A stretch of DNA of 64,000 nt from Albidovulum aestuarii (GTDB taxonomy: Bacteria > Pseudomonadota > Alphaproteobacteria > Rhodobacterales > Rhodobacteraceae). The stretch lies in NCBI RefSeq assembly GCF_029961185.1, contig NZ_JASBQQ010000002.1, positions 62,001 through 126,000 of the forward strand, read 5' to 3'. The position numbers were made by a program, and so were the translations under genes. Below are positions 26,109-35,014 of this stretch, piece after piece (within the stretch, counting starts at the first letter, position 1; each line of letters starts with the position of its first letter). The notes under the pieces were generated by a model. The model saw only the letters and a list, made by a program, of their open reading frames with translations, was not told the origin of the DNA and did no database searches.

Positions 26109-27110
26109 TCAGGTCTGGGACGGAGTTTTTGCCATGACCCTGTCGGGCGTGTGGATCAGCTTTTCACCGGCGACGAAATCATCGAGCGAGAAGGCCCAGG
26201 TCCCGCGCGGCCAGCGCAGGTCCATATGGCGCAGGCGGGGCCGGTAGACGGCCGTGTAAAGCGTGCCGAAACCACGTGAAAACGCTGTCGAATAAAGGGG
26301 CGGGCGCAGGAACGCGCCGATGAACTTCTCTTCCGGTTCGACGTGCAGGGTCAGCCGTTGTAGCAGGAACCGTTCCCGCTCTACCGTCGCGGTCATGCGA
26401 GCATGATCAGTCCATTCGACCGATTTCTGGTGGTTCGTCGCCACCGCCGCATGGGTGATCTGGGCGGGCCGGTCGGGCGCCATCAACGCAGTCAGAAAGC
26501 GCCGCTTGGCGTCGAGCACAGTGACGTTGTAGCTCATATGCGTCGGGATGCGCGCCAGCGCCTTGCCCGCCTCTTCCGCCGTTGTACAGGTTTCCAGCAC
26601 GTAGCGCAGGATCAGGGGCACGCCGAACCCCTCGCCCACGACCTGCCGCCCGCCGAAGGTCAGCGACACAGCTAACCCGGCGTCGTTCATCCCGTCGACA
26701 AGACCCCAGAGCCCGTCGCTGGTGCCGAGAACCCGGCGGCCCAACCAGTTGGTGCGCATGATCAGCCTGTCAAACGCGGCCGGGCTGTAATCGTAGTTCC
26801 GCACCATGACCGGCTCACGCCCCGGCCAGATCGCCTGTGAGCAACCCGAAAGGTAAGGGGGTGGGCGCCAGAAGCTCAGAAAACGTGCCGAGTGATCGCC
26901 GCCGCCTGCAAGGTCGCAGAGCCGGTCATACAGCCCCAAAAGTTCGGGCATATGCGCCTCAAGCGCCTTGCGGCTTTGCCAATAGGGCGGGCGTGGTCCC
27001 TCACCCTCCCGCAACCACCAACGATGGTAGTCCGGCCAATATTCGTGGAAAAGCGCGGCCCAAACCGGGCCGGGTTCCTCGATATCGACGGCGCGCCAAA
27101 GATAGTCCAT
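26109..27110 (-). CDS. C45-family Ntn-hydrolase / acyltransferase-like protein
   Basis: 333 residues. C90 in LSGCSQAIW, followed by VMVRNYDYSP, is the pattern of the autocatalytic N-terminal nucleophile cysteine of isopenicillin-N acyltransferase and related C45 proteins; GLVDGMNDAGLAVSL is the matching second motif. Such enzymes cleave or form amide bonds. No signal peptide is visible. It is the last gene of a tight minus-strand operon with an ATP-grasp ligase, an amino-acid decarboxylase and a nitrilase-family amidase. The substrate is unknown; an N-acyl or peptide-like polyamine amide is a guess. Confidence 0.82.
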   Translation of the reverse strand: MDYLWRAVDIEEPGPVWAALFHEYWPDYHRWWLREGEGPRPPYWQSRKALEAHMPELLGLYDRLCDLAGGGDHSARFLSFWRPPPYLSGCSQAIWPGREPVMVRNYDYSPAAFDRLIMRTNWLGRRVLGTSDGLWGLVDGMNDAGLAVSLTFGGRQVVGEGFGVPLILRYVLETCTTAEEAGKALARIPTHMSYNVTVLDAKRRFLTALMAPDRPAQITHAAVATNHQKSVEWTDHARMTATVERERFLLQRLTLHVEPEEKFIGAFLRPPLYSTAFSRGFGTLYTAVYRPRLRHMDLRWPRGTWAFSLDDFVAGEKLIHTPDRVMAKTPSQT

Positions 27111-27142
27111 TGATGCTATGTGCCGGGGCTGACCCGCGAAGT

Positions 27143-28603
27143 CTACATGATCTTGAAGGCAGGATCCGCCAGGGCCGGACCCGCCTCGGCTGTCGGCAGA
27201 GGCCGGGCGGCGAAGCCCTGCTTAATGCCGTGGATCCATTTCTTGGCCCGTTCGTTCAGCTGGAACCCGTTGGTCATCGATCGGCCACGGGTTACGAGAA
27301 TGCCAAGATCGGCACCTTCGTAGCGGTAGTCACCGGGCTTCAGGATCCGAAGGAAGAAGGCCTCGTTTTCGGATTCAACCGCGCGGCGGTGATAATCGAA
27401 GCGATCATAGACGACGCGACCATCCTCCAGCATCCGGTAGATGCCGGATTGCGGGGCGTGGGTAACGATGTCGACCGAGTCGTCGGTATGCTTTATCACC
27501 ATCTGCGACCAGCTATCGATCATCGATTGATCGGCCCATCGGGCGTTCAGTTCCTCCACATCCAGATGGAACTTTTTCTTTGAGAATTCAAGGAGATGGA
27601 AGAGGAACAAGGGCGCATCGGCATGGGCGAAGGCCGCGTGGTTGGTCATCGACGACGCCCCGGTGATGCGGGGGTTCAACTCGCCCAGCCAAATCTCGCC
27701 GGTCTTCTTGTCGATCAGAAAGTCGAGTTCGAAATAGCCGCGATAGCCTTCCTTGCGAAGCTGTTCGCCGAACTGGAACGTGAGTTCCCGCGCGCGTTGT
27801 CGGGTCTTCGGCGGGAAGGCGGTGGAGAAGATTTCGTTGCCGCACCAGCCGCCGCGATAGGGGGTGAGTTCCTTGAACCCCACTAGCTCGGTCATCAGCG
27901 GACCGACGATGGTGCCCTCTTTCGTGGCACACGCCTCGATCGCGGACCCCCGGCAGTCGATCCGCTTCATGATCTTGATCTCGCCCTCTCCGACGATCTC
28001 ATGCTCATGGCGGCGGAAATCGGCCTCGGACTTGATGAAGAATGTGGTGTGACCAGAATCGCCGAAGGCCGATTGCAGCACCAGATCGTGGCCCAGCCCG
28101 GCCTTGTCACAGATCTTCTTCAGGTGGTCATAGCTTTTGACCTCGGACAGCGTGTTCGGCACCGAGGGCACACCGGCTTTGTTGCCGATCCGGACCGTCT
28201 CGATCTTGTTGTCGCATTTCGTGCGCAGCTTGGCTTTCGGGAACCAGACATCGCCACCCAGTTCCTTGGCCAGCCGCTCCGTCTCCTCATCGAACATCAG
28301 GAAGACGAATTTCGGCTTGCCGCCGCGCCGCTTGATCAGGTCAATCACCTCCTTGTGCTGGAGGAGATAGTTGTTGATCTCTTCGATCGACTGGAATTCG
28401 GCATGCGGCTGCTCGGAGGGGCAGAAGACGTTCGGATGTCGGCCGTCATAACAATCAATGTAACATATATATTTGAAGTTCTTGCACCATTCGTCGATGC
28501 CCAAGAGGTTGAAGTTCGTGGCTGACACGAAATAGATCGGGTCCTCGTTGCGGTGAAAATGCCGGCGGATTTCCGAGATGTTCTTCAACTCACCTGTGGC
28601 CAT
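27143..28603 (-). CDS. ATP-grasp ligase, biotin-carboxylase-like fold, unknown substrate
   Basis: 486 residues. ATP-grasp elements: glycine loop SAFGDSGHTTFF, central MKRIDCRGSAIE, and C-terminal metal motif YFELDFLIDKKTGEIWLGELNPRITG. It lacks the biotin-dependent partner domains, so annotations as biotin carboxylase are likely misleading; a carboxylate-amine ligase is more probable. An N-terminal Rossmann-like half (residues 1-120) carries YIDCYDGRHPNVF. It lies 13 bp after the decarboxylase gene and 32 bp before the C45 gene. Base use matches its neighbours. Confidence 0.85.
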   Translation of the reverse strand: MATGELKNISEIRRHFHRNEDPIYFVSATNFNLLGIDEWCKNFKYICYIDCYDGRHPNVFCPSEQPHAEFQSIEEINNYLLQHKEVIDLIKRRGGKPKFVFLMFDEETERLAKELGGDVWFPKAKLRTKCDNKIETVRIGNKAGVPSVPNTLSEVKSYDHLKKICDKAGLGHDLVLQSAFGDSGHTTFFIKSEADFRRHEHEIVGEGEIKIMKRIDCRGSAIEACATKEGTIVGPLMTELVGFKELTPYRGGWCGNEIFSTAFPPKTRQRARELTFQFGEQLRKEGYRGYFELDFLIDKKTGEIWLGELNPRITGASSMTNHAAFAHADAPLFLFHLLEFSKKKFHLDVEELNARWADQSMIDSWSQMVIKHTDDSVDIVTHAPQSGIYRMLEDGRVVYDRFDYHRRAVESENEAFFLRILKPGDYRYEGADLGILVTRGRSMTNGFQLNERAKKWIHGIKQGFAARPLPTAEAGPALADPAFKIM

Positions 28604-28616
28604 TTGATACTCCCTG

Positions 28617-31355
28617 TTATTCCGCCGCTTTCGGCAGTTTCTGTCCCATGCGCTTTGTCAGCGCCTCTTCCGTAAAGACCCTGAGGCCCAAGTCAGCGCG
28701 ATAGCCATGGATTTCATTGACGTCGAGCGCGCGCATGAAGGCGAGGATTTCCGAGCTTACCACCTGCCCCGGCACGAGGATCGGGAAGCCTGGCGGATAG
28801 GGGATGATAAACGAGGCCGAAACCACCTCGCGCCCCGAAGCCATCGCGTCATTGATCGACCCGTGCAGGTCGAGATAATCGCAGTTCTGTTCATCATAGC
28901 TGAGGAAGAACGCGGTGCGGATATCACCCTCGGTCGTCACGTTGTCGCTTCGGAATGCGTCGTGGAAGCGCGAAAAATCCGGCAGGGGCGGCAGATCTTC
29001 CATCAGCGCCTTCACCCGGTGTTCGAAGGCCCGGCGTTCCATGTTCGATGCATCGTCAAGCCGGTCATCCAGTTCCTTCGCGATTTCGACCAGTACTTCG
29101 ATGAGATAGGCGACAGAAGACCGCGTAGTTCCGATATTCGTCATGAACAGCACGGTGTTGCGCGAGGTCTTGTTGATCTGGATTCCGTATTTGTCCATCA
29201 GGATCTGGGTCTTGAACGTGTCGCCGTCCCAGCCGGTGCCGCCGACGGCCAGTGTCACGCGCGTCGCGTCCAGAACAAATTCGTCCTTTTCCCAGCACTC
29301 CCAGATATCGGTCCAACCCTGATGTGGGTCGTAGTAGCTTTCAACCCCGCTTTCCCGGTATTCGTCGGGAATCATGTCCCCGGCCGTCAACACCTTGAAA
29401 TATTTCTGCAAAAGCGGATGGGTAGAGATCGCCTTGCGCATCGACATGGCGGCCTCGACCTGGCGCTGAACAAACTCGAACCCCTCCAGTTCCACCTGCC
29501 TGCGGCCCACGTCGAGGGATGCGATGATCTGGTAGTTGGGCGAAGTTGACGTGTGGGTCATGTAGGCTTCGTGGAACGACTGCTCCACCTCACCCTTGAA
29601 GTCCTGATCGTTGACATGGATCATTGAACCTTGTCGCAACGAGGTCAGCGTCTTGTGCGTCGATTGCGTCGTATAGACCCTGACGCGGGCGTGTGGCGGT
29701 GGGATGAGGCGCGTGTTCAGCAAAGCCTCATCGTCCGCATTCTTCAGCTTTTCCGCCTGTTTTTCATAGGCCTTGGCATGCTCGGGCGACTTCAGCCATT
29801 CACGCAAAACATTGGCCGCGTTCATGCCGGTGCGCTGGCGATAGGTCGGGCCGAAGCGGGCGAAGGCGAACCAGGCCTCATCCCAGAGGAAGATGAGGTC
29901 AGGCTTGATCGCGAGGCATTCCTCCATCACCCGTTCGACATTATAGACGACGCCGTCGAACGTGCAGTTGGTCAGCAGCAGCATCCGCACCTGATCGAGC
30001 TTGCCAGCCGCCTTCAACTGCAGAAGCTGATGCTTGATCTCACGCAGCGGCACCGCGCCGTACATCGAGTATTCGTTCAGAGGATAGCTGTCGAGATAGA
30101 CGACCTGCGCGCCCGCCAGCACCATGCCGTAGTGGTGCGACTTGTGGCAATCGCGGTCGACTAGGACAATATCTCCTGGTCGAACAAGGGCTTGTACGAC
30201 GATCTTGTTACAGGTTGAGGTACCGTTCGTAGCAAAGAAGGTCTGTTTTGACCCGAAGGCCCGCGCGGCCAGTTCCTGCGCTTTCTTGATCGGCCCGTGA
30301 GGCTCCAGGAGGCTGTCGAGCCCGCCCGAAGTGGCCGAGGTTTCCGCCAGGAAGATGTTCGGCCCATAGAAGGCGCCCATGTCCTGAATCCAGTGCGACC
30401 GCGATATCGACTTGCCGCGCGAGATCGGCATGGCATGAAAAACACCGGTGGGCTGCTTGGAATAGTTCACGAGCGCGGTAAAGAACGGCGTGTTGTAGCG
30501 CGACTGCACGCCGCGCAGGATGTTCAGGTGCAGTTCCTGAAAATCCTCCTGATTGTAGAAGACCCGGCGGCAAATGCCGAGATCAAGACCGGCGATTTCC
30601 TCGACCGAGCGATCAGTGACAAGGTAGGCATCCAACTCCGGCCGTACTGACGCAATCAGCCGACACAGTTCCGGTCCATAATTCTCGGGCTTCAACCCTT
30701 CCAGCCCCTCGGCCCCGCCAACACGGTTGAGGTATCGCTTGAGGATCGGCAAATCGACACCCGATTTCAGCCGCAGGCCCGGCCGCACAACGACGGCCTG
30801 AACATTGTGGTTGAAGAGAATACCGATCAGCGCATCCTCAAGGCTGGGCACCACGACGGTCTCATACATGAACGGGTCTTCGAAGCGACGCATCCGGCTG
30901 ACATTGCTCTTCAGCCAGCGTTCCTGATGCTCGTTCAGGTCATCGACGATCATCACCTCGAAATAGGGTTTGGTCAGGGCGCGAGCCTCGGGCGAGAGCA
31001 TCGCTTCGTCGTCGTGATCATCGACATCGGCGCTTTCACGGTCGAGCGGGATATGACGGCGGCGATAGGCGCCCGTGGTCAGCGCCCGCGTGACCCGGTG
31101 CACGCCGAAGGCCACATCGTCGAGATTGCCGTGTTCGAACTGTCGCCGCAAATGGTCAAAGGCCTGTACACCGGGAAACGCCCAATACCGCTCGATCAAG
31201 GCGAGCGAGGAGAACAACTCTTCAATCTGCTTGCGCAGGGCGGCGGATTTCTTGCCTTGCGGATCGCGGCTAAGCGCCCCGGTCGCCTCACGCAGGGTGC
31301 TCCAGCGGTCCGAACGGAGTTGGATCGCTGAGTAATAATCATTGACTGATTGCAT
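28617..31355 (-). CDS. Long Orn/Lys/Arg decarboxylase, PLP fold type I
   Basis: 912 residues, far longer than the usual 710-760. The PLP lysine is K568 in YTTQSTHKTLTSLRQGSM; D492 in FLWDEAWFAF pairs with the cofactor; ATNGTSTCNKIV binds phosphate. The C-terminal domain (YPPGFPILVPGQVV) is typical. The first 130 or so residues form a charged helical extension before the wing-like domain (YFEVMIVDDLNEH). It would give agmatine, cadaverine or putrescine; specificity cannot be read. It is the second gene of the four-gene operon. Confidence 0.9.
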   Translation of the reverse strand: MQSVNDYYSAIQLRSDRWSTLREATGALSRDPQGKKSAALRKQIEELFSSLALIERYWAFPGVQAFDHLRRQFEHGNLDDVAFGVHRVTRALTTGAYRRRHIPLDRESADVDDHDDEAMLSPEARALTKPYFEVMIVDDLNEHQERWLKSNVSRMRRFEDPFMYETVVVPSLEDALIGILFNHNVQAVVVRPGLRLKSGVDLPILKRYLNRVGGAEGLEGLKPENYGPELCRLIASVRPELDAYLVTDRSVEEIAGLDLGICRRVFYNQEDFQELHLNILRGVQSRYNTPFFTALVNYSKQPTGVFHAMPISRGKSISRSHWIQDMGAFYGPNIFLAETSATSGGLDSLLEPHGPIKKAQELAARAFGSKQTFFATNGTSTCNKIVVQALVRPGDIVLVDRDCHKSHHYGMVLAGAQVVYLDSYPLNEYSMYGAVPLREIKHQLLQLKAAGKLDQVRMLLLTNCTFDGVVYNVERVMEECLAIKPDLIFLWDEAWFAFARFGPTYRQRTGMNAANVLREWLKSPEHAKAYEKQAEKLKNADDEALLNTRLIPPPHARVRVYTTQSTHKTLTSLRQGSMIHVNDQDFKGEVEQSFHEAYMTHTSTSPNYQIIASLDVGRRQVELEGFEFVQRQVEAAMSMRKAISTHPLLQKYFKVLTAGDMIPDEYRESGVESYYDPHQGWTDIWECWEKDEFVLDATRVTLAVGGTGWDGDTFKTQILMDKYGIQINKTSRNTVLFMTNIGTTRSSVAYLIEVLVEIAKELDDRLDDASNMERRAFEHRVKALMEDLPPLPDFSRFHDAFRSDNVTTEGDIRTAFFLSYDEQNCDYLDLHGSINDAMASGREVVSASFIIPYPPGFPILVPGQVVSSEILAFMRALDVNEIHGYRADLGLRVFTEEALTKRMGQKLPKAAE

Positions 31356-31431
31356 GCATCATCCCCGTCGGTGACGGCAGCCGATGCCTTTTGCGGTCCT
31401 TCCGCAAGCCTTGCGGCGTTCCGCGAGGGGC

Positions 31432-32424
31432 TCAGCCGCTCGCTGTTTTGTCCGCCAGTGGCGGAATGTGACCCAGATCCGGCCCAACCGGACCGCGACC
31501 CATGTTACCGCCAGCATGCGACATCCGGTCGCTGGCCACAAGGCGATTTTCCAGTCCGGCGCGCGAGCCCTGACGCGGCATTTCCAGCGGCCCGAGGGAA
31601 TTCAGGTACTCATCCGCCCCGCTTTTTCTGTCGTAAACAGAAAACTCGGCGTCACGGTCGCGGAAGCTTTTCAAAACCTGACCAAGCCCCTTGATCCCGG
31701 TTTCCCGCTGACGACGGACAAGAGACAGGTCGACCTCAATCGGGAACATATCCTCCTGACCCGCGGATTGATGCAATACGGTGGACGAGGGATCGACGAT
31801 CAGCGACCGGCCCACGCCCCCTGCCCCAAGCCCGTTCACGTCGATGACGTAGCACTGGAACTGCGCCGCCGTGGCGCGTGCGATGGCGAGTTCCGCGTCA
31901 CGGTCGGTCGTGCCGGTCAGAACAGGGTGCAGCAGCACCTCGACACCGGCGCTTGTCAGTTGCCGCGTGGTTTCAGGGAACCAGATGTCATAACAGATCG
32001 AGAGGCCAAAGCGCCCGACATTCGGAACGTCGAAGATGCAAAACTCTGTCCCCGCCTCGACCTCAATCTCGTAGGGCCGGAAAGGGAACATCTTCCGATA
32101 TTTGGTGACGATCTGCCCGTCCGGGTCGATCACCGCCGATGTGTTGTAGATCCGACCATCCGGGGTCTTTTCGAACATGGACCCCGGAATCAGCCAGATC
32201 TTGTGCTTCTTCGCCGCCGCGCGGAACTGGTCCAGCGCCTCATTCTCGAAAGGCTGGGCAAAGCGGTGCAGCGGTCCATACGGCGCAAGCTCGGAAAAGA
32301 GCACCATCTCCGTCCAGGGAAAGCGCGCCATCAGCACATCAATCCGGTGGATCATGCCTTCGACATTGGATTGCAGCGCGTTCACGTACATCTGCACGCC
32401 GGCGATCGCGAATGGGGTCATCAT
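31432..32424 (-). CDS. Carbon-nitrogen hydrolase (nitrilase superfamily)
   Basis: 330 residues. The Glu-Lys-Cys triad is clear: E45 in LFSELAPYG, K111 in KYRKMFPF, C144 in SICYDIWFPE. The superfamily includes N-carbamoylputrescine amidase and other amidases cutting linear amides. A roughly 60-residue C-terminal tail (after DAEFSVYDRKSG) is rich in Gly/Pro and outside the core fold. First gene of the operon with the decarboxylase, 76 bp away. Acting on a polyamine amide is inferred from context. Confidence 0.87.
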   Translation of the reverse strand: MMTPFAIAGVQMYVNALQSNVEGMIHRIDVLMARFPWTEMVLFSELAPYGPLHRFAQPFENEALDQFRAAAKKHKIWLIPGSMFEKTPDGRIYNTSAVIDPDGQIVTKYRKMFPFRPYEIEVEAGTEFCIFDVPNVGRFGLSICYDIWFPETTRQLTSAGVEVLLHPVLTGTTDRDAELAIARATAAQFQCYVIDVNGLGAGGVGRSLIVDPSSTVLHQSAGQEDMFPIEVDLSLVRRQRETGIKGLGQVLKSFRDRDAEFSVYDRKSGADEYLNSLGPLEMPRQGSRAGLENRLVASDRMSHAGGNMGRGPVGPDLGHIPPLADKTASG

Positions 32425-33935
<1,511 letters not shown>

Positions 33936-33940
33936 GCGCC

Positions 33941-35014
33941 ATGATCCCGATGCCGCGCGAGGATACGCCGCTATGGTCCGACAGCGAACCGCTGGAATGC
34001 GTGATGGTCGTGCCCGAGGCGCCGAATGTGAAGACCTTCGTCTTCCGTCCGCCGTCGGGGGCTACCTTCCTCTTCCGCGCTGGTCAGTTCATCACCTTGG
34101 AACTGCCGCTGCCAGGTGGACCGCTCTACCGGACCTACACGATCTCGTCGAGCCCGACCTCAAACGTCTACCTCTCGGTCACCGTGAAGGCACAGCAGGA
34201 CAGTCAGGGCTCGCGCTGGCTGGTCGAAAACCTCGTGCCGGGGATGCGGCTGAACGCCAAGGGGCCGGGCGGCGTCTTCCACCTGCCGCGCCAGCCCAAT
34301 GGCAAATACCTTTTCATCTCGGCGGGCTCCGGCGTCACCCCGATGATGTCGATGGCGACTTTCCTTTGGGAACGCGGTGAAGAGCCGGATATCAGCTTCA
34401 TCCAATGCGCCAACAGGCCTTCGGAACTGATCTTCCGCAAACGGCTCGAATACATGGCGGGACGGGTGCGTGGCCTTCGGTTGAACTTCGTTGTCGCCGA
34501 GGAAGACCCCTACGAGGTCTGGACCGGCTATCGCGGCCATTTCAACCAACTCATGCTGGGCCTGATGACGCCCGACTATCTTGACCGCGATGTCTATTGC
34601 TGCGGGCCTGAGGGCTTCATGACGGGGGTGCGTGAAACGCTTCTGTCGCTTGGCTACGACATGGAACGCTATCATCAGGAGACGTTCCAGGCCCCGGTCA
34701 TGCGGGTCGAGGATATCGAGGTCCACGAGGATGTGGTGCCGCAGGAAACCGCGAAGGCCGAAATCGCCTTCGTCAATTCCGGCGTCACAACGGAATGCAC
34801 CGAAACCGATACGGTTCTGGCGATCGCCAAGGCCTCGGGCCTCAACATGCCATCGGGGTGCAATTTCGGCGTCTGCGGCACCTGCAAGGTCAAGACCCGT
34901 TCGGGTCAGGTTCACATGGTGCATAACGGCGGCATCAGCGAAGAGGACATCGAGGCCGGTTACATCCTCGCCTGCTGCTCGCGCCCGCTGGGCCGGGTCG
35001 AGGTCGAACTCTGA
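33941..35014 (+). CDS. gbcB: Glycine betaine monooxygenase, ferredoxin reductase subunit
   Basis: 357 residues, hybrid reductase: flavin-binding barrel with YRTYTISSSP (about 63-72), NAD-binding domain with ISAGSGVTPMMSM and YCCGPEGFM, and a C-terminal plant-type [2Fe-2S] domain with SGCNFGVCGTCKVKT and a final Cys pair. It passes electrons from NADH to the Rieske centre of GbcA. Directly downstream of gbcA in the same operon. Confidence 0.88.
   Translation: MIPMPREDTPLWSDSEPLECVMVVPEAPNVKTFVFRPPSGATFLFRAGQFITLELPLPGGPLYRTYTISSSPTSNVYLSVTVKAQQDSQGSRWLVENLVPGMRLNAKGPGGVFHLPRQPNGKYLFISAGSGVTPMMSMATFLWERGEEPDISFIQCANRPSELIFRKRLEYMAGRVRGLRLNFVVAEEDPYEVWTGYRGHFNQLMLGLMTPDYLDRDVYCCGPEGFMTGVRETLLSLGYDMERYHQETFQAPVMRVEDIEVHEDVVPQETAKAEIAFVNSGVTTECTETDTVLAIAKASGLNMPSGCNFGVCGTCKVKTRSGQVHMVHNGGISEEDIEAGYILACCSRPLGRVEVEL

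What the first reader, a model, noticed from the sequence alone, without database searches (positions are those of the whole stretch)
26109..32424. Four-gene decarboxylase / ATP-grasp / C45 / amidase operon of unknown product
Sequence shows four tightly packed minus-strand genes (gaps 76, 13, 32 bp): nitrilase-type amidase, 912-residue Orn/Lys/Arg decarboxylase, ATP-grasp ligase and C45 Ntn-hydrolase. Family knowledge says these four chemistries are making an amine, joining it to a carboxylate, and forming or cutting amide bonds. Inference: a dedicated pathway for a polyamine or amino-acid amide, which I cannot match to any described pathway.
Basis: partly seen in the sequence, partly recalled or inferred. 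Interest (0 to 1): 0.78.

Follow-up and report, generated by a model that had tools for sequence, protein, structure and literature searches.

The report
Conserved decarboxylase, ligase and amidase module
A block of four enzyme genes that travels together through marine and soil bacteria, with some relatives beside the nitrogen-fixation genes of legume symbionts, looks like an undescribed pathway tied to glutamate and GABA rather than the polyamine pathway first guessed.

Summary
In detail: four intact minus-strand genes (nitrilase-type amidase, 912-aa OKR-fold PLP decarboxylase, ATP-grasp enzyme, C45 Ntn-hydrolase), gaps 76/13/32 bp. All four stand in the same order and strand in 75 of 80 named relatives; four of the five exceptions end at a contig edge. 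They stay linked, reordered, at 40-61% identity outside the window's class. It is a real unit.

The polyamine reading is weakened. The decarboxylase clusters with M. tuberculosis Rv2531c; the glutamate proposed to bind the distal cation in Lys/Arg decarboxylases is asparagine in every member checked. In 35 of 80 loci a TAXI receptor lies upstream; it resembles the glutamate-specific VcGluP and keeps its two critical residues in 37 of 37 copies checked. GABA-type transaminases recur nearby. On three plasmids no such decarboxylase lies near, and arginine-to-GABA genes stand there instead. On two R. leguminosarum plasmids OKR-ATP-grasp-C45 lies beside nifHDKE.

Best reading: a GABA-centred amide pathway, product unknown, confidence about 0.35. 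No biochemistry was done.

The parts
31432..32424 (-). Gene 1: nitrilase-superfamily amide hydrolase (CNH), 330 aa; catalytic-triad-like E45, K111, C144
   Evidence: triad positions invariant in 13 of 13 aligned and in 7 of 7 plasmid relatives.
28617..31355 (-). Gene 2: OKR-fold PLP decarboxylase, Rv2531c-type clade, 912 aa; PLP lysine K568, clade-specific N728 and R313
   Evidence: (836 bits to 9n0o over residues 14-902); AlphaFold2 model pLDDT 80.0, with residues 302-350 below 50.
27143..28603 (-). Gene 3: ATP-grasp enzyme (NF005096, named 'biotin carboxylase'), 486 aa; D294, E308, N310, R312
   Evidence: model pLDDT 83.8; fold ties with biotin carboxylase, PurK and PylC.
26109..27110 (-). 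Gene 4: C45 autoproteolytic Ntn acyltransferase/hydrolase, 333 aa; nucleophile C90 after a small residue in most
   Evidence: C90 invariant in 15 of 15 aligned and in the 11 of 12 plasmid relatives that cover it.

Best explanation
A self-contained, patchily distributed metabolic module centred on GABA. Inferred route: the OKR-fold PLP enzyme decarboxylates glutamate, or a glutamate-type acidic or neutral amino acid, to GABA or a GABA-like omega-amino acid; the ATP-grasp enzyme uses ATP to join that omega-amino acid to a partner through an amide bond; the C45 Ntn-hydrolase and the nitrilase-type amidase transfer or cleave such amides; class-III transaminases and semialdehyde dehydrogenases next door take surplus omega-amino acid towards succinate. 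Shown: four intact genes with conserved catalytic residues, linkage, persistence of the linkage at distance, the clade-wide Glu-to-Asn change, the glutamate-type receptor upstream in many relatives, and arginine-to-GABA genes in place of the decarboxylase on some plasmids. Inferred: the substrate, every chemical step, the partner and the product.
For: Linkage: 75 of 80 named loci, 18 of 18 longer loci from an overlapping set, and reordered clusters L172 and L173 (CNH-ATPG-C45-OKR) and L174 at 40-61% identity. Protein distances correlate (OKR-ATPG Spearman 0.72 in the named set, 0 of 500 permutations as high; species history alone could give much of this). Decarboxylase: Asn at the column where the printed AdiA-type, LDC and LdcI chains have Glu, in 20 of 20 aligned, in 8 of 8 plasmid relatives and in Rv2531c; Glu526 was proposed as a lysine site in LDC (PMC5607190, passages). 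Glutamate: TAXI receptor on the same strand upstream in 35 of 80 loci; the one compared (L084) gives 394 bits to 8S4J, VcGluP, described as glutamate-specific (PMC11574862, passages); the critical Y45 and Q93 are kept in 37 of 37 (35 named loci plus L181 and L197). GABA: TIGR00700 GABA transaminase near the module in L094 (547.6, cut-off 506.65), annotated gabT in L191. Glutamate dehydrogenase-like genes a few kb away in L186, L187, L188 and L196; a DctA/GltP-like symporter just after C45 in L190. Two supply routes, OKR or arginine-to-GABA genes (L189, L192, L194), accompany the same ATPG, C45 and CNH.
Against: No assay. The window's own locus has no TAXI, TRAP, UspA or transaminase of these kinds beside it; the nearest TAXI in its genome is 54% identical on another contig. 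A TAXI from the same genome that is not next to the module (L184) also keeps Y45, S75, Q93 and E125, so these residues mark the receptor type, not the module. The L190 symporter is below both the DctA and GltP cut-offs and the two rhizobial dehydrogenases scanned are below their equivalog cut-offs. The arginine plasmids fit an arginine/agmatine substrate at least as well. Why GABA formation should need an ATP-grasp enzyme and two amide hydrolases is unexplained. A GABA transaminase nearby could be serving something else.
Confidence: 0.35

Rival explanations
1. Arginine or agmatine catabolism: OKR makes agmatine, a class-III transaminase makes 4-guanidinobutyraldehyde, and the other enzymes work on guanidinobutyrate or agmatine amides on the way to GABA. 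OKR plus transaminase would be equivalent to racemase plus D-amino acid dehydrogenase plus AruI, which give the same aldehyde.
For: L189 and L192 carry ATPG and C45 in a run with annotated agmatinase-family SpeB, AruI, ALDH, D-amino acid dehydrogenase, racemase and RidA, with CNH divergent at one end; L194 shows the same except that SpeB and UspA were not visible in my ORF picking. Models run on L189 only: AruI PRK07524 737 (cut-off 500), SpeB TIGR01230 212.3 (174.3), D-amino acid dehydrogenase 473.5 (383), racemase 393 (480, not passed). A CNH homologue (48%) lies within 5 kb of an annotated AruI in L201. 25 of 80 loci have a class-III transaminase on the same strand -45 to 315 bp after C45. 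Arginine-to-succinate networks matter in bacteroids (PMC7268258, passages).
Against: Asn in place of the Glu seen in arginine and lysine decarboxylases; glutamate-type receptor; no ureohydrolase recognised by eye in the type A loci printed (the output was cut and no ureohydrolase search was run).
Confidence: 0.25
2. Acyl-protected route: the ATP-grasp enzyme first makes a gamma-glutamyl (or similar) amide of an amine, OKR decarboxylates the glutamyl part, and CNH/C45 free GABA and the amine; a functional parallel of the Puu pathway or of butirosin side-chain assembly (both recalled).
For: XRE-cupin regulator near the module in 20 of 80 loci (the one scanned has PuuR as best model at 134.6, below its cut-off 211); GABA transaminase neighbours; Asn would suit a neutral amide side chain; glutamate-type receptor.
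Against: The plasmid operons that would supply free GABA do not need this order of steps; no direct evidence for a glutamyl amide.
Confidence: 0.17
3. One reading: biosynthesis of a polyamine or amino-acid amide from Arg, Lys or Orn.
For: Family membership of the OKR protein; plausible order amine, ligation, amide processing.
Against: Subfamily cut-offs missed widely (e.g. LdcC 219 of 968); Glu-to-Asn change; many neighbourhoods look like uptake and catabolism.
Confidence: 0.1
4. A route tied to osmolytes (ectoine family), with the four genes acting on diaminobutyrate or acetyl-diaminobutyrate.
For: In L173 the four genes sit inside an ectoine operon: EhuR 596 (cut-off 480), DoeA 653.7 (613), DoeB 491.3 (402.7), EutB 453.5 (413). 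DoeA above cut-off in 26 of 52 module-bearing against 38 of 192 other genomes of the order (Fisher p 3e-5, not corrected for kinship).
Against: Half of the module-bearing genomes lack DoeA above cut-off; one such insertion seen; the L173 DoeA probe hits none of the 80 named loci.
Confidence: 0.07

Closest known systems
M. tuberculosis Rv2531c 'probable amino acid decarboxylase' (PDB 9N0N/9N0O/9N0P)
   Same: Same full-length clade (836 bits over residues 14-902); same PLP motif and the same Asn in place of Glu. Activity not clarified according to PMC12910592 (passages).
   Different: Position 732 is Ile there; its gene neighbourhood was not examined here.
OKR decarboxylases LdcI, AdiA and relatives
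   Same: Pfam family and PLP motif (SxHK).
   Different: 912 aa with a long N-terminal part; Asn for the distal-site Glu; the TPGH-x-GG segment reads MPISRGKS-like; far under the subfamily cut-offs.
CATCH-N arginine network and arginine transaminase/AruI route
   Same: AruI, ALDH and D-amino acid dehydrogenase (and SpeB in L189 and L192) stand with ATPG and C45, CNH nearby; that route ends at GABA.
   Different: 'Biotin carboxylase' occurs nowhere in the main text of the CATCH-N paper (find; other words for the ATP-grasp and C45 enzymes were not searched); the window has an OKR gene and no AruI beside it.
Puu gamma-glutamyl-putrescine pathway
   Same: Logic of ligation and later amide cleavage, a PuuR-like regulator and a GABA transaminase in some relatives.
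   Different: ATP-grasp instead of a glutamine-synthetase-type ligase; extra PLP decarboxylase; regulator below the PuuR cut-off. Pathway logic is recalled.
VcGluP-type TAXI TRAP transporters
   Same: Receptor upstream in relatives keeps Y45, S75, Q93, E125 in 37 of 37.
   Different: M201 is Thr in 33 of 37; not present beside the window's own module.

Membership tests
OKR (group III, fold I) decarboxylase, broad family | Pfam OKR_DC_1 match and PLP lysine in S-x-H-K | tested here: met
   PF01276 261.3 bits, cut-off 27; STHK with K568 invariant in 20 of 20.
Lys/Arg/Orn decarboxylase subfamilies | NCBIfam subfamily cut-off | tested here: not met
   Best LdcC 219.1 against 968; arginine decarboxylase 179.8 against 1167; ODC 171.6 against 794.
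Lys/Arg/Orn decarboxylase subfamilies | Glu at the proposed distal-cation site (Glu526 of LdcI) | tested here: not met
   Asn728 in 20 of 20 plus 8 of 8 plasmid relatives; Glu in the three canonical Lys/Arg chains printed, no Orn decarboxylase printed. Role of Glu526 from PMC5607190 (docking and a cited proposal, passages).
Rv2531c-type clade | Full-length similarity including the N-terminal region | tested here: met
   836 bits, residues 14-902; 1123 bits with the profile.
Biotin carboxylase (NF005096) | Equivalog cut-off of the NCBI model | tested here: met
   771.1 against 684. The model name is an annotation; function not shown.
True biotin-dependent carboxylase | Biotin carrier and carboxyltransferase partner genes | not tested
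   No search was run for them; none is part of the recurring block. Fold ties with BC, PurK and PylC at Z 22-23.
C45 Ntn acyltransferase/hydrolase | Model cut-off and nucleophile Cys | tested here: met
   NF040521 173.3 against 85; C90 invariant. Self-cleavage not testable here.
Nitrilase superfamily | Glu-Lys-Cys triad | tested here: met
   E45, K111, C144 invariant in 13 of 13.
N-carbamoylputrescine amidase AguB | TIGR03381 cut-off | tested here: not met
   70 against 410.25.
Glutamate TAXI receptor (neighbour in relatives) | Residues Y45 and Q93 critical for glutamate binding | tested here: met
   37 of 37, residues from PMC11574862 (passages). Not part of the window's locus.
Described polyamine pathway | A published pathway with these four genes | tested here: inconclusive
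   None found in PMC open-access text; subscription papers not held.

The most novel reading that the evidence does not exclude
The Rv2531c-type clade is an OKR-fold decarboxylase family that has left basic amino acids and acts on glutamate or glutamyl amides. With an ATP-grasp enzyme and C45/nitrilase hydrolases it forms an undescribed GABA-amide pathway, used by marine roseobacters for imported glutamate and, in a related form, by legume symbionts beside their nitrogenase genes.
Probability: 0.28. Interest if true: 0.78.

Novelty: new variant of a known kind. Interest (0 to 1): 0.6.

Why it matters
It turns four loosely annotated genes into one testable pathway that recurs in about a fifth of the sampled genomes of the window's order (its decarboxylase in 52 of 244) and, without the nitrilase, on rhizobial plasmids, in two beside nifHDKE. 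It gives a sequence-based hint on what the orphan Rv2531c clade may not do (act on basic amino acids), and it warns that 'ornithine decarboxylase' and 'biotin carboxylase' labels in these operons may be misleading.

Tried and rejected
AguB/N-carbamoylputrescine route: rejected, 70 bits against a cut-off of 410. GbcA/GbcB, PGM and ManC as pathway members: rejected, seen together only in L062/L082 (one and the same contig), and PGM and ManC also in L083. Fold of the ATP-grasp enzyme as a guide to its reaction: biotin carboxylase, PurK and PylC rows tie, so it does not decide between bicarbonate and amino-acid activation; TMq of the listed rows is 0.52-0.63. C45 profile against solved structures: only weak choloylglycine-hydrolase hits, E 0.013 at best. 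R732 as an acid-binding residue: dropped, it is Pro, Val or Ile in some members. Ectoine link as a rule: dropped, half of the module-bearing genomes lack DoeA above cut-off. P. phymatum Bphy_7724 'ATP-grasp' (PMC8305402, passages): not shown to be a homologue; no Paraburkholderia in the genus tally of the 32 plasmid records with a match at 1e-40. C45 homologues on a Sulfitobacter plasmid and a pSymB have no annotated module neighbours. The ~50% OKR paralogues in L080 and L081 have none of the other three genes in 20 kb at 1e-8.

L003-L031, L062-L079 and L082-L161 overlap (same contigs appear twice), so their counts are not independent. Loci that miss a gene are L097, L118, L129, L141 (no CNH) and L148 (no C45); all but L129 end at a contig edge by their coordinates. 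The Asn count (159 of 159 loci) includes repeats of the same genomes and a regex that already selects the clade, so I do not use it. In one search I first measured the wrong serine for S75 and repeated it (37 of 37). Neighbour distances rest on BLAST hit ends, not on gene starts; of the 19 loci whose best class-III transaminase hit is under 50% identity, only the L094 protein was tested by model. Absences of OKR in L189, L192, L193, L194 and of CNH in L175, L176, L186-L188, L195, L196 hold for the fetched stretches at 1e-6, not for whole genomes.
Full report
1. Observation. Domain assignments hold. The ATP-grasp protein has no Pfam match at E<=0.001 and is known to NCBIfam NF005096 ('biotin carboxylase', 771.1 bits, cut-off 684).

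2. It is a unit. In 244 genomes of the window's order, 52 carry the full-length decarboxylase at 74% identity or more, and three genomes carry a paralogue at 48-51% (list recounted). In 29 of 29 loci returned besides the window's own, CNH, OKR and ATPG are contiguous. I fetched 18 of those 29 at 20 kb, and all 18 have the four genes in order. These sets share contigs and are not independent. Among the flanks, GbcA/GbcB, PGM and ManC do not recur. Class-wide, 7 of 289 genomes exceed the NF005096 cut-off; phylum-wide 10 of 378 match the ATP-grasp alignment at 1e-30: a patchy accessory block. Outside the window's class it persists: CNH-ATPG-C45-OKR in L172 and L173, C45-CNH divergent from OKR-ATPG in L174, OKR-ATPG-C45 with no CNH in the 20 kb held for L175 and L176. 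Pairwise distances of the four proteins correlate over 82 loci (Spearman 0.71 to 0.83), which shared species history could partly explain.

3. Enzymes look active. OKR: PLP lysine K568. C45: C90. CNH: E45, K111, C144. ATP-grasp: D294, E308, N310, R312. All are invariant in alignments A2-A5 (20, 17, 15 and 13 sequences) and in the plasmid relatives that cover them, except for a second ATP-grasp copy in L188, where all four positions are changed. The ATP-grasp model (pLDDT 83.8) ties with biotin carboxylase, PurK and PylC at Z about 22-23 with 320-400 aligned residues and rmsd mostly 3.8-5, so the fold does not tell bicarbonate from amino-acid chemistry.

4. The decarboxylase is not an ordinary OKR enzyme. 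Its closest solved relative is M. tuberculosis Rv2531c over nearly its full length (836 bits), a protein whose activity was not clarified according to a 2026 review (PMC12910592, passages). Where the AdiA-type chain 6q6i, LDC 6y3x and LdcI 9e0m read 'VEKT' or 'VEKS', this clade reads 'INKT' and the like: Asn728 in 20 of 20 aligned, in 8 of 8 plasmid relatives, and in Rv2531c. For LDC, docking and an older proposal place Glu526 at the lysine side chain (PMC5607190, passages). The TPGH-x-GG segment of LdcI is replaced by a segment with R313, invariant in the 20 aligned and the 8 plasmid relatives; the model is poor there. I infer, without assay, that the substrate lacks a distal cation. Two paralogues at about 50% (L080, L081) stand beside aspartate-alanine-type antiporters (TIGR03802 597 to 615 bits, cut-off 547), in L081 also AspD (709.7, cut-off 435), which again points away from basic amino acids.

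5. Neighbours of relatives. In the 80 named loci: TAXI receptor on the same strand 35, fused TRAP permease 36, UspA 24, XRE-cupin regulator 20, FMN glutamate-synthase-like protein 20, class-III transaminase at 50% or more to the L084 copy (PRK07483 model) 27, of which 25 lie on the same strand -45 to 315 bp after C45. In 19 further loci the best class-III transaminase hit is more distant; the L094 copy passes the GABA transaminase model (547.6, cut-off 506.65), and the gene in that place is annotated gabT in L191. The TAXI receptor of L084 gives 394 bits to 8S4J, VcGluP, described as glutamate-specific with Y45 and Q93 critical (PMC11574862, passages). Y45, S75, Q93 and E125 are kept in 37 of 37 receptors beside the module (35 named loci plus L181 and L197), Y200 in 36; M201 is Thr in 33, Gln in 3, Ile in 1. 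Control: of the two TAXI homologues in the window's own genome, neither next to the module, L184 (54%) keeps Y45, S75, Q93 and E125, while L185 (34%) has lost Q93 and E125. The residues thus mark a receptor type and not the module itself.

6. Plasmid relatives give two further layouts. ATP-grasp homologues occur on 32 of 72,556 plasmid records at 1e-40. (B) In L189 and L192 ATPG and C45 stand in a run with annotated permease, UspA, agmatinase-family SpeB, AruI, ALDH, D-amino acid dehydrogenase, racemase and RidA, with CNH and an Lrp gene divergent at one end, and no OKR in the stretch; L194, unannotated, shows the same from its ORFs except that UspA and SpeB were not visible in my ORF picking (models run on L189 only). 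That set would take arginine to 4-guanidinobutyrate and GABA (recalled biochemistry). C. necator L193 has CNH-ATPG-C45 and no OKR behind an oligopeptide-type ABC system (by eye). (C) In S. meliloti SM11 and R. leguminosarum (L186, L188, L195, L196, L200) OKR-ATPG-C45 occurs; no CNH was found in the stretches searched (L186, L188, L195, L196; L200 by annotation only). nifH-D-K-E lies divergent, with one small annotated ORF between, in L195 and L200; fix-type genes lie about 9 kb off in L188; in L196 no nif or fix gene is annotated in the 25 kb shown and L186 is unannotated. An ABC transporter, amidase-family protein, MurR/RpiR regulator and serine hydrolase follow in L195, L196 and L200, and glutamate dehydrogenase-like genes lie near in L186, L187, L188 and L196. 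The plasmid of L187/L200 also holds a second copy with the decarboxylase in two pieces and C45 cut short beside insertion-sequence genes. C. oxalaticus L190 has CNH-OKR-ATPG-C45 followed by a symporter that resembles DctA and GltP but passes neither cut-off. So ATPG plus C45 is present in each of these layouts, while OKR or CNH can be missing, in some cases where another decarboxylating route or another amidase stands.

7. Reading. Two supply routes (an OKR enzyme unlike the basic ones, often behind a glutamate-type receptor, or arginine-to-GABA genes) accompany the same ATP-grasp, C45 and amidase set, and GABA-type transaminases recur. The simplest common node is GABA. I therefore prefer a GABA-centred amide pathway (0.35) over arginine/agmatine catabolism (0.25), a gamma-glutamyl-protected route (0.17), the polyamine reading (0.10) and an ectoine link (0.07). 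The ectoine case rests on L173, where the four genes sit inside a complete-looking doe/eut operon, and on an uncorrected association (26 of 52 against 38 of 192).

8. Literature. Nothing describing this gene set was found in PMC open-access text with the terms; subscription papers and preprints are not held, so this is not proof of novelty. A table row 'LdcC, arginine/lysine/ornithine decarboxylase' in PMC6969944 (one passage), a paper on R. leguminosarum from Vavilovia, may or may not be this gene. The Rv2531c structure paper (PMC12329521) is not held and was not seen.

9. Verdict. Interest 0.6.

Noticed in passing
L173:3-15921: A complete-looking ectoine/hydroxyectoine catabolic operon (EhuR, DoeA, DoeB and EutB by model; Lrp, DoeC-like, DoeD-like, EutC-like by eye or lower score) with the four genes inserted between the Lrp gene and the dehydrogenase.
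   Followed up: partly
L188:12001-14644: Two tandem ATP-grasp genes on a R. leguminosarum plasmid; the second has changes at D294, E308, N310 and R312 and may be catalytically dead.
   Followed up: partly
L196:2611-6445: On a R. leguminosarum plasmid, a Nif11-like leader peptide with radical SAM epimerase and C-methyltransferase genes (RiPP-type cluster) a few kb from the module, as annotated.
   Followed up: no
L080:6662-11204 and L081:1736-11322: Stand-alone ~50% paralogues of the decarboxylase beside aspartate-alanine-type antiporters (and AspD plus a Ca/H exchanger in L081): a possible separate decarboxylation/antiport system.
   Followed up: partly
window 32700-35014: Divergent Rieske oxygenase and reductase pair resembling glycine betaine monooxygenase GbcA/GbcB (497 and 338 bits, below the cut-offs 670 and 500).
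   Followed up: no
L202 (own genome C21:232000-249000): A second TAXI-TRAP pair in the window's genome next to a MurR/RpiR-type regulator, an FAD oxidoreductase, a BKACE-like protein and a class-III transaminase (by eye).
   Followed up: no
L086:13964-15631 and 19 further named loci: An FMN-binding glutamate-synthase-like protein (555 aa in L086, 538 in L094) recurs near the module, mostly on the opposite strand; the L086 copy matches only part of the GltB model.
   Followed up: no
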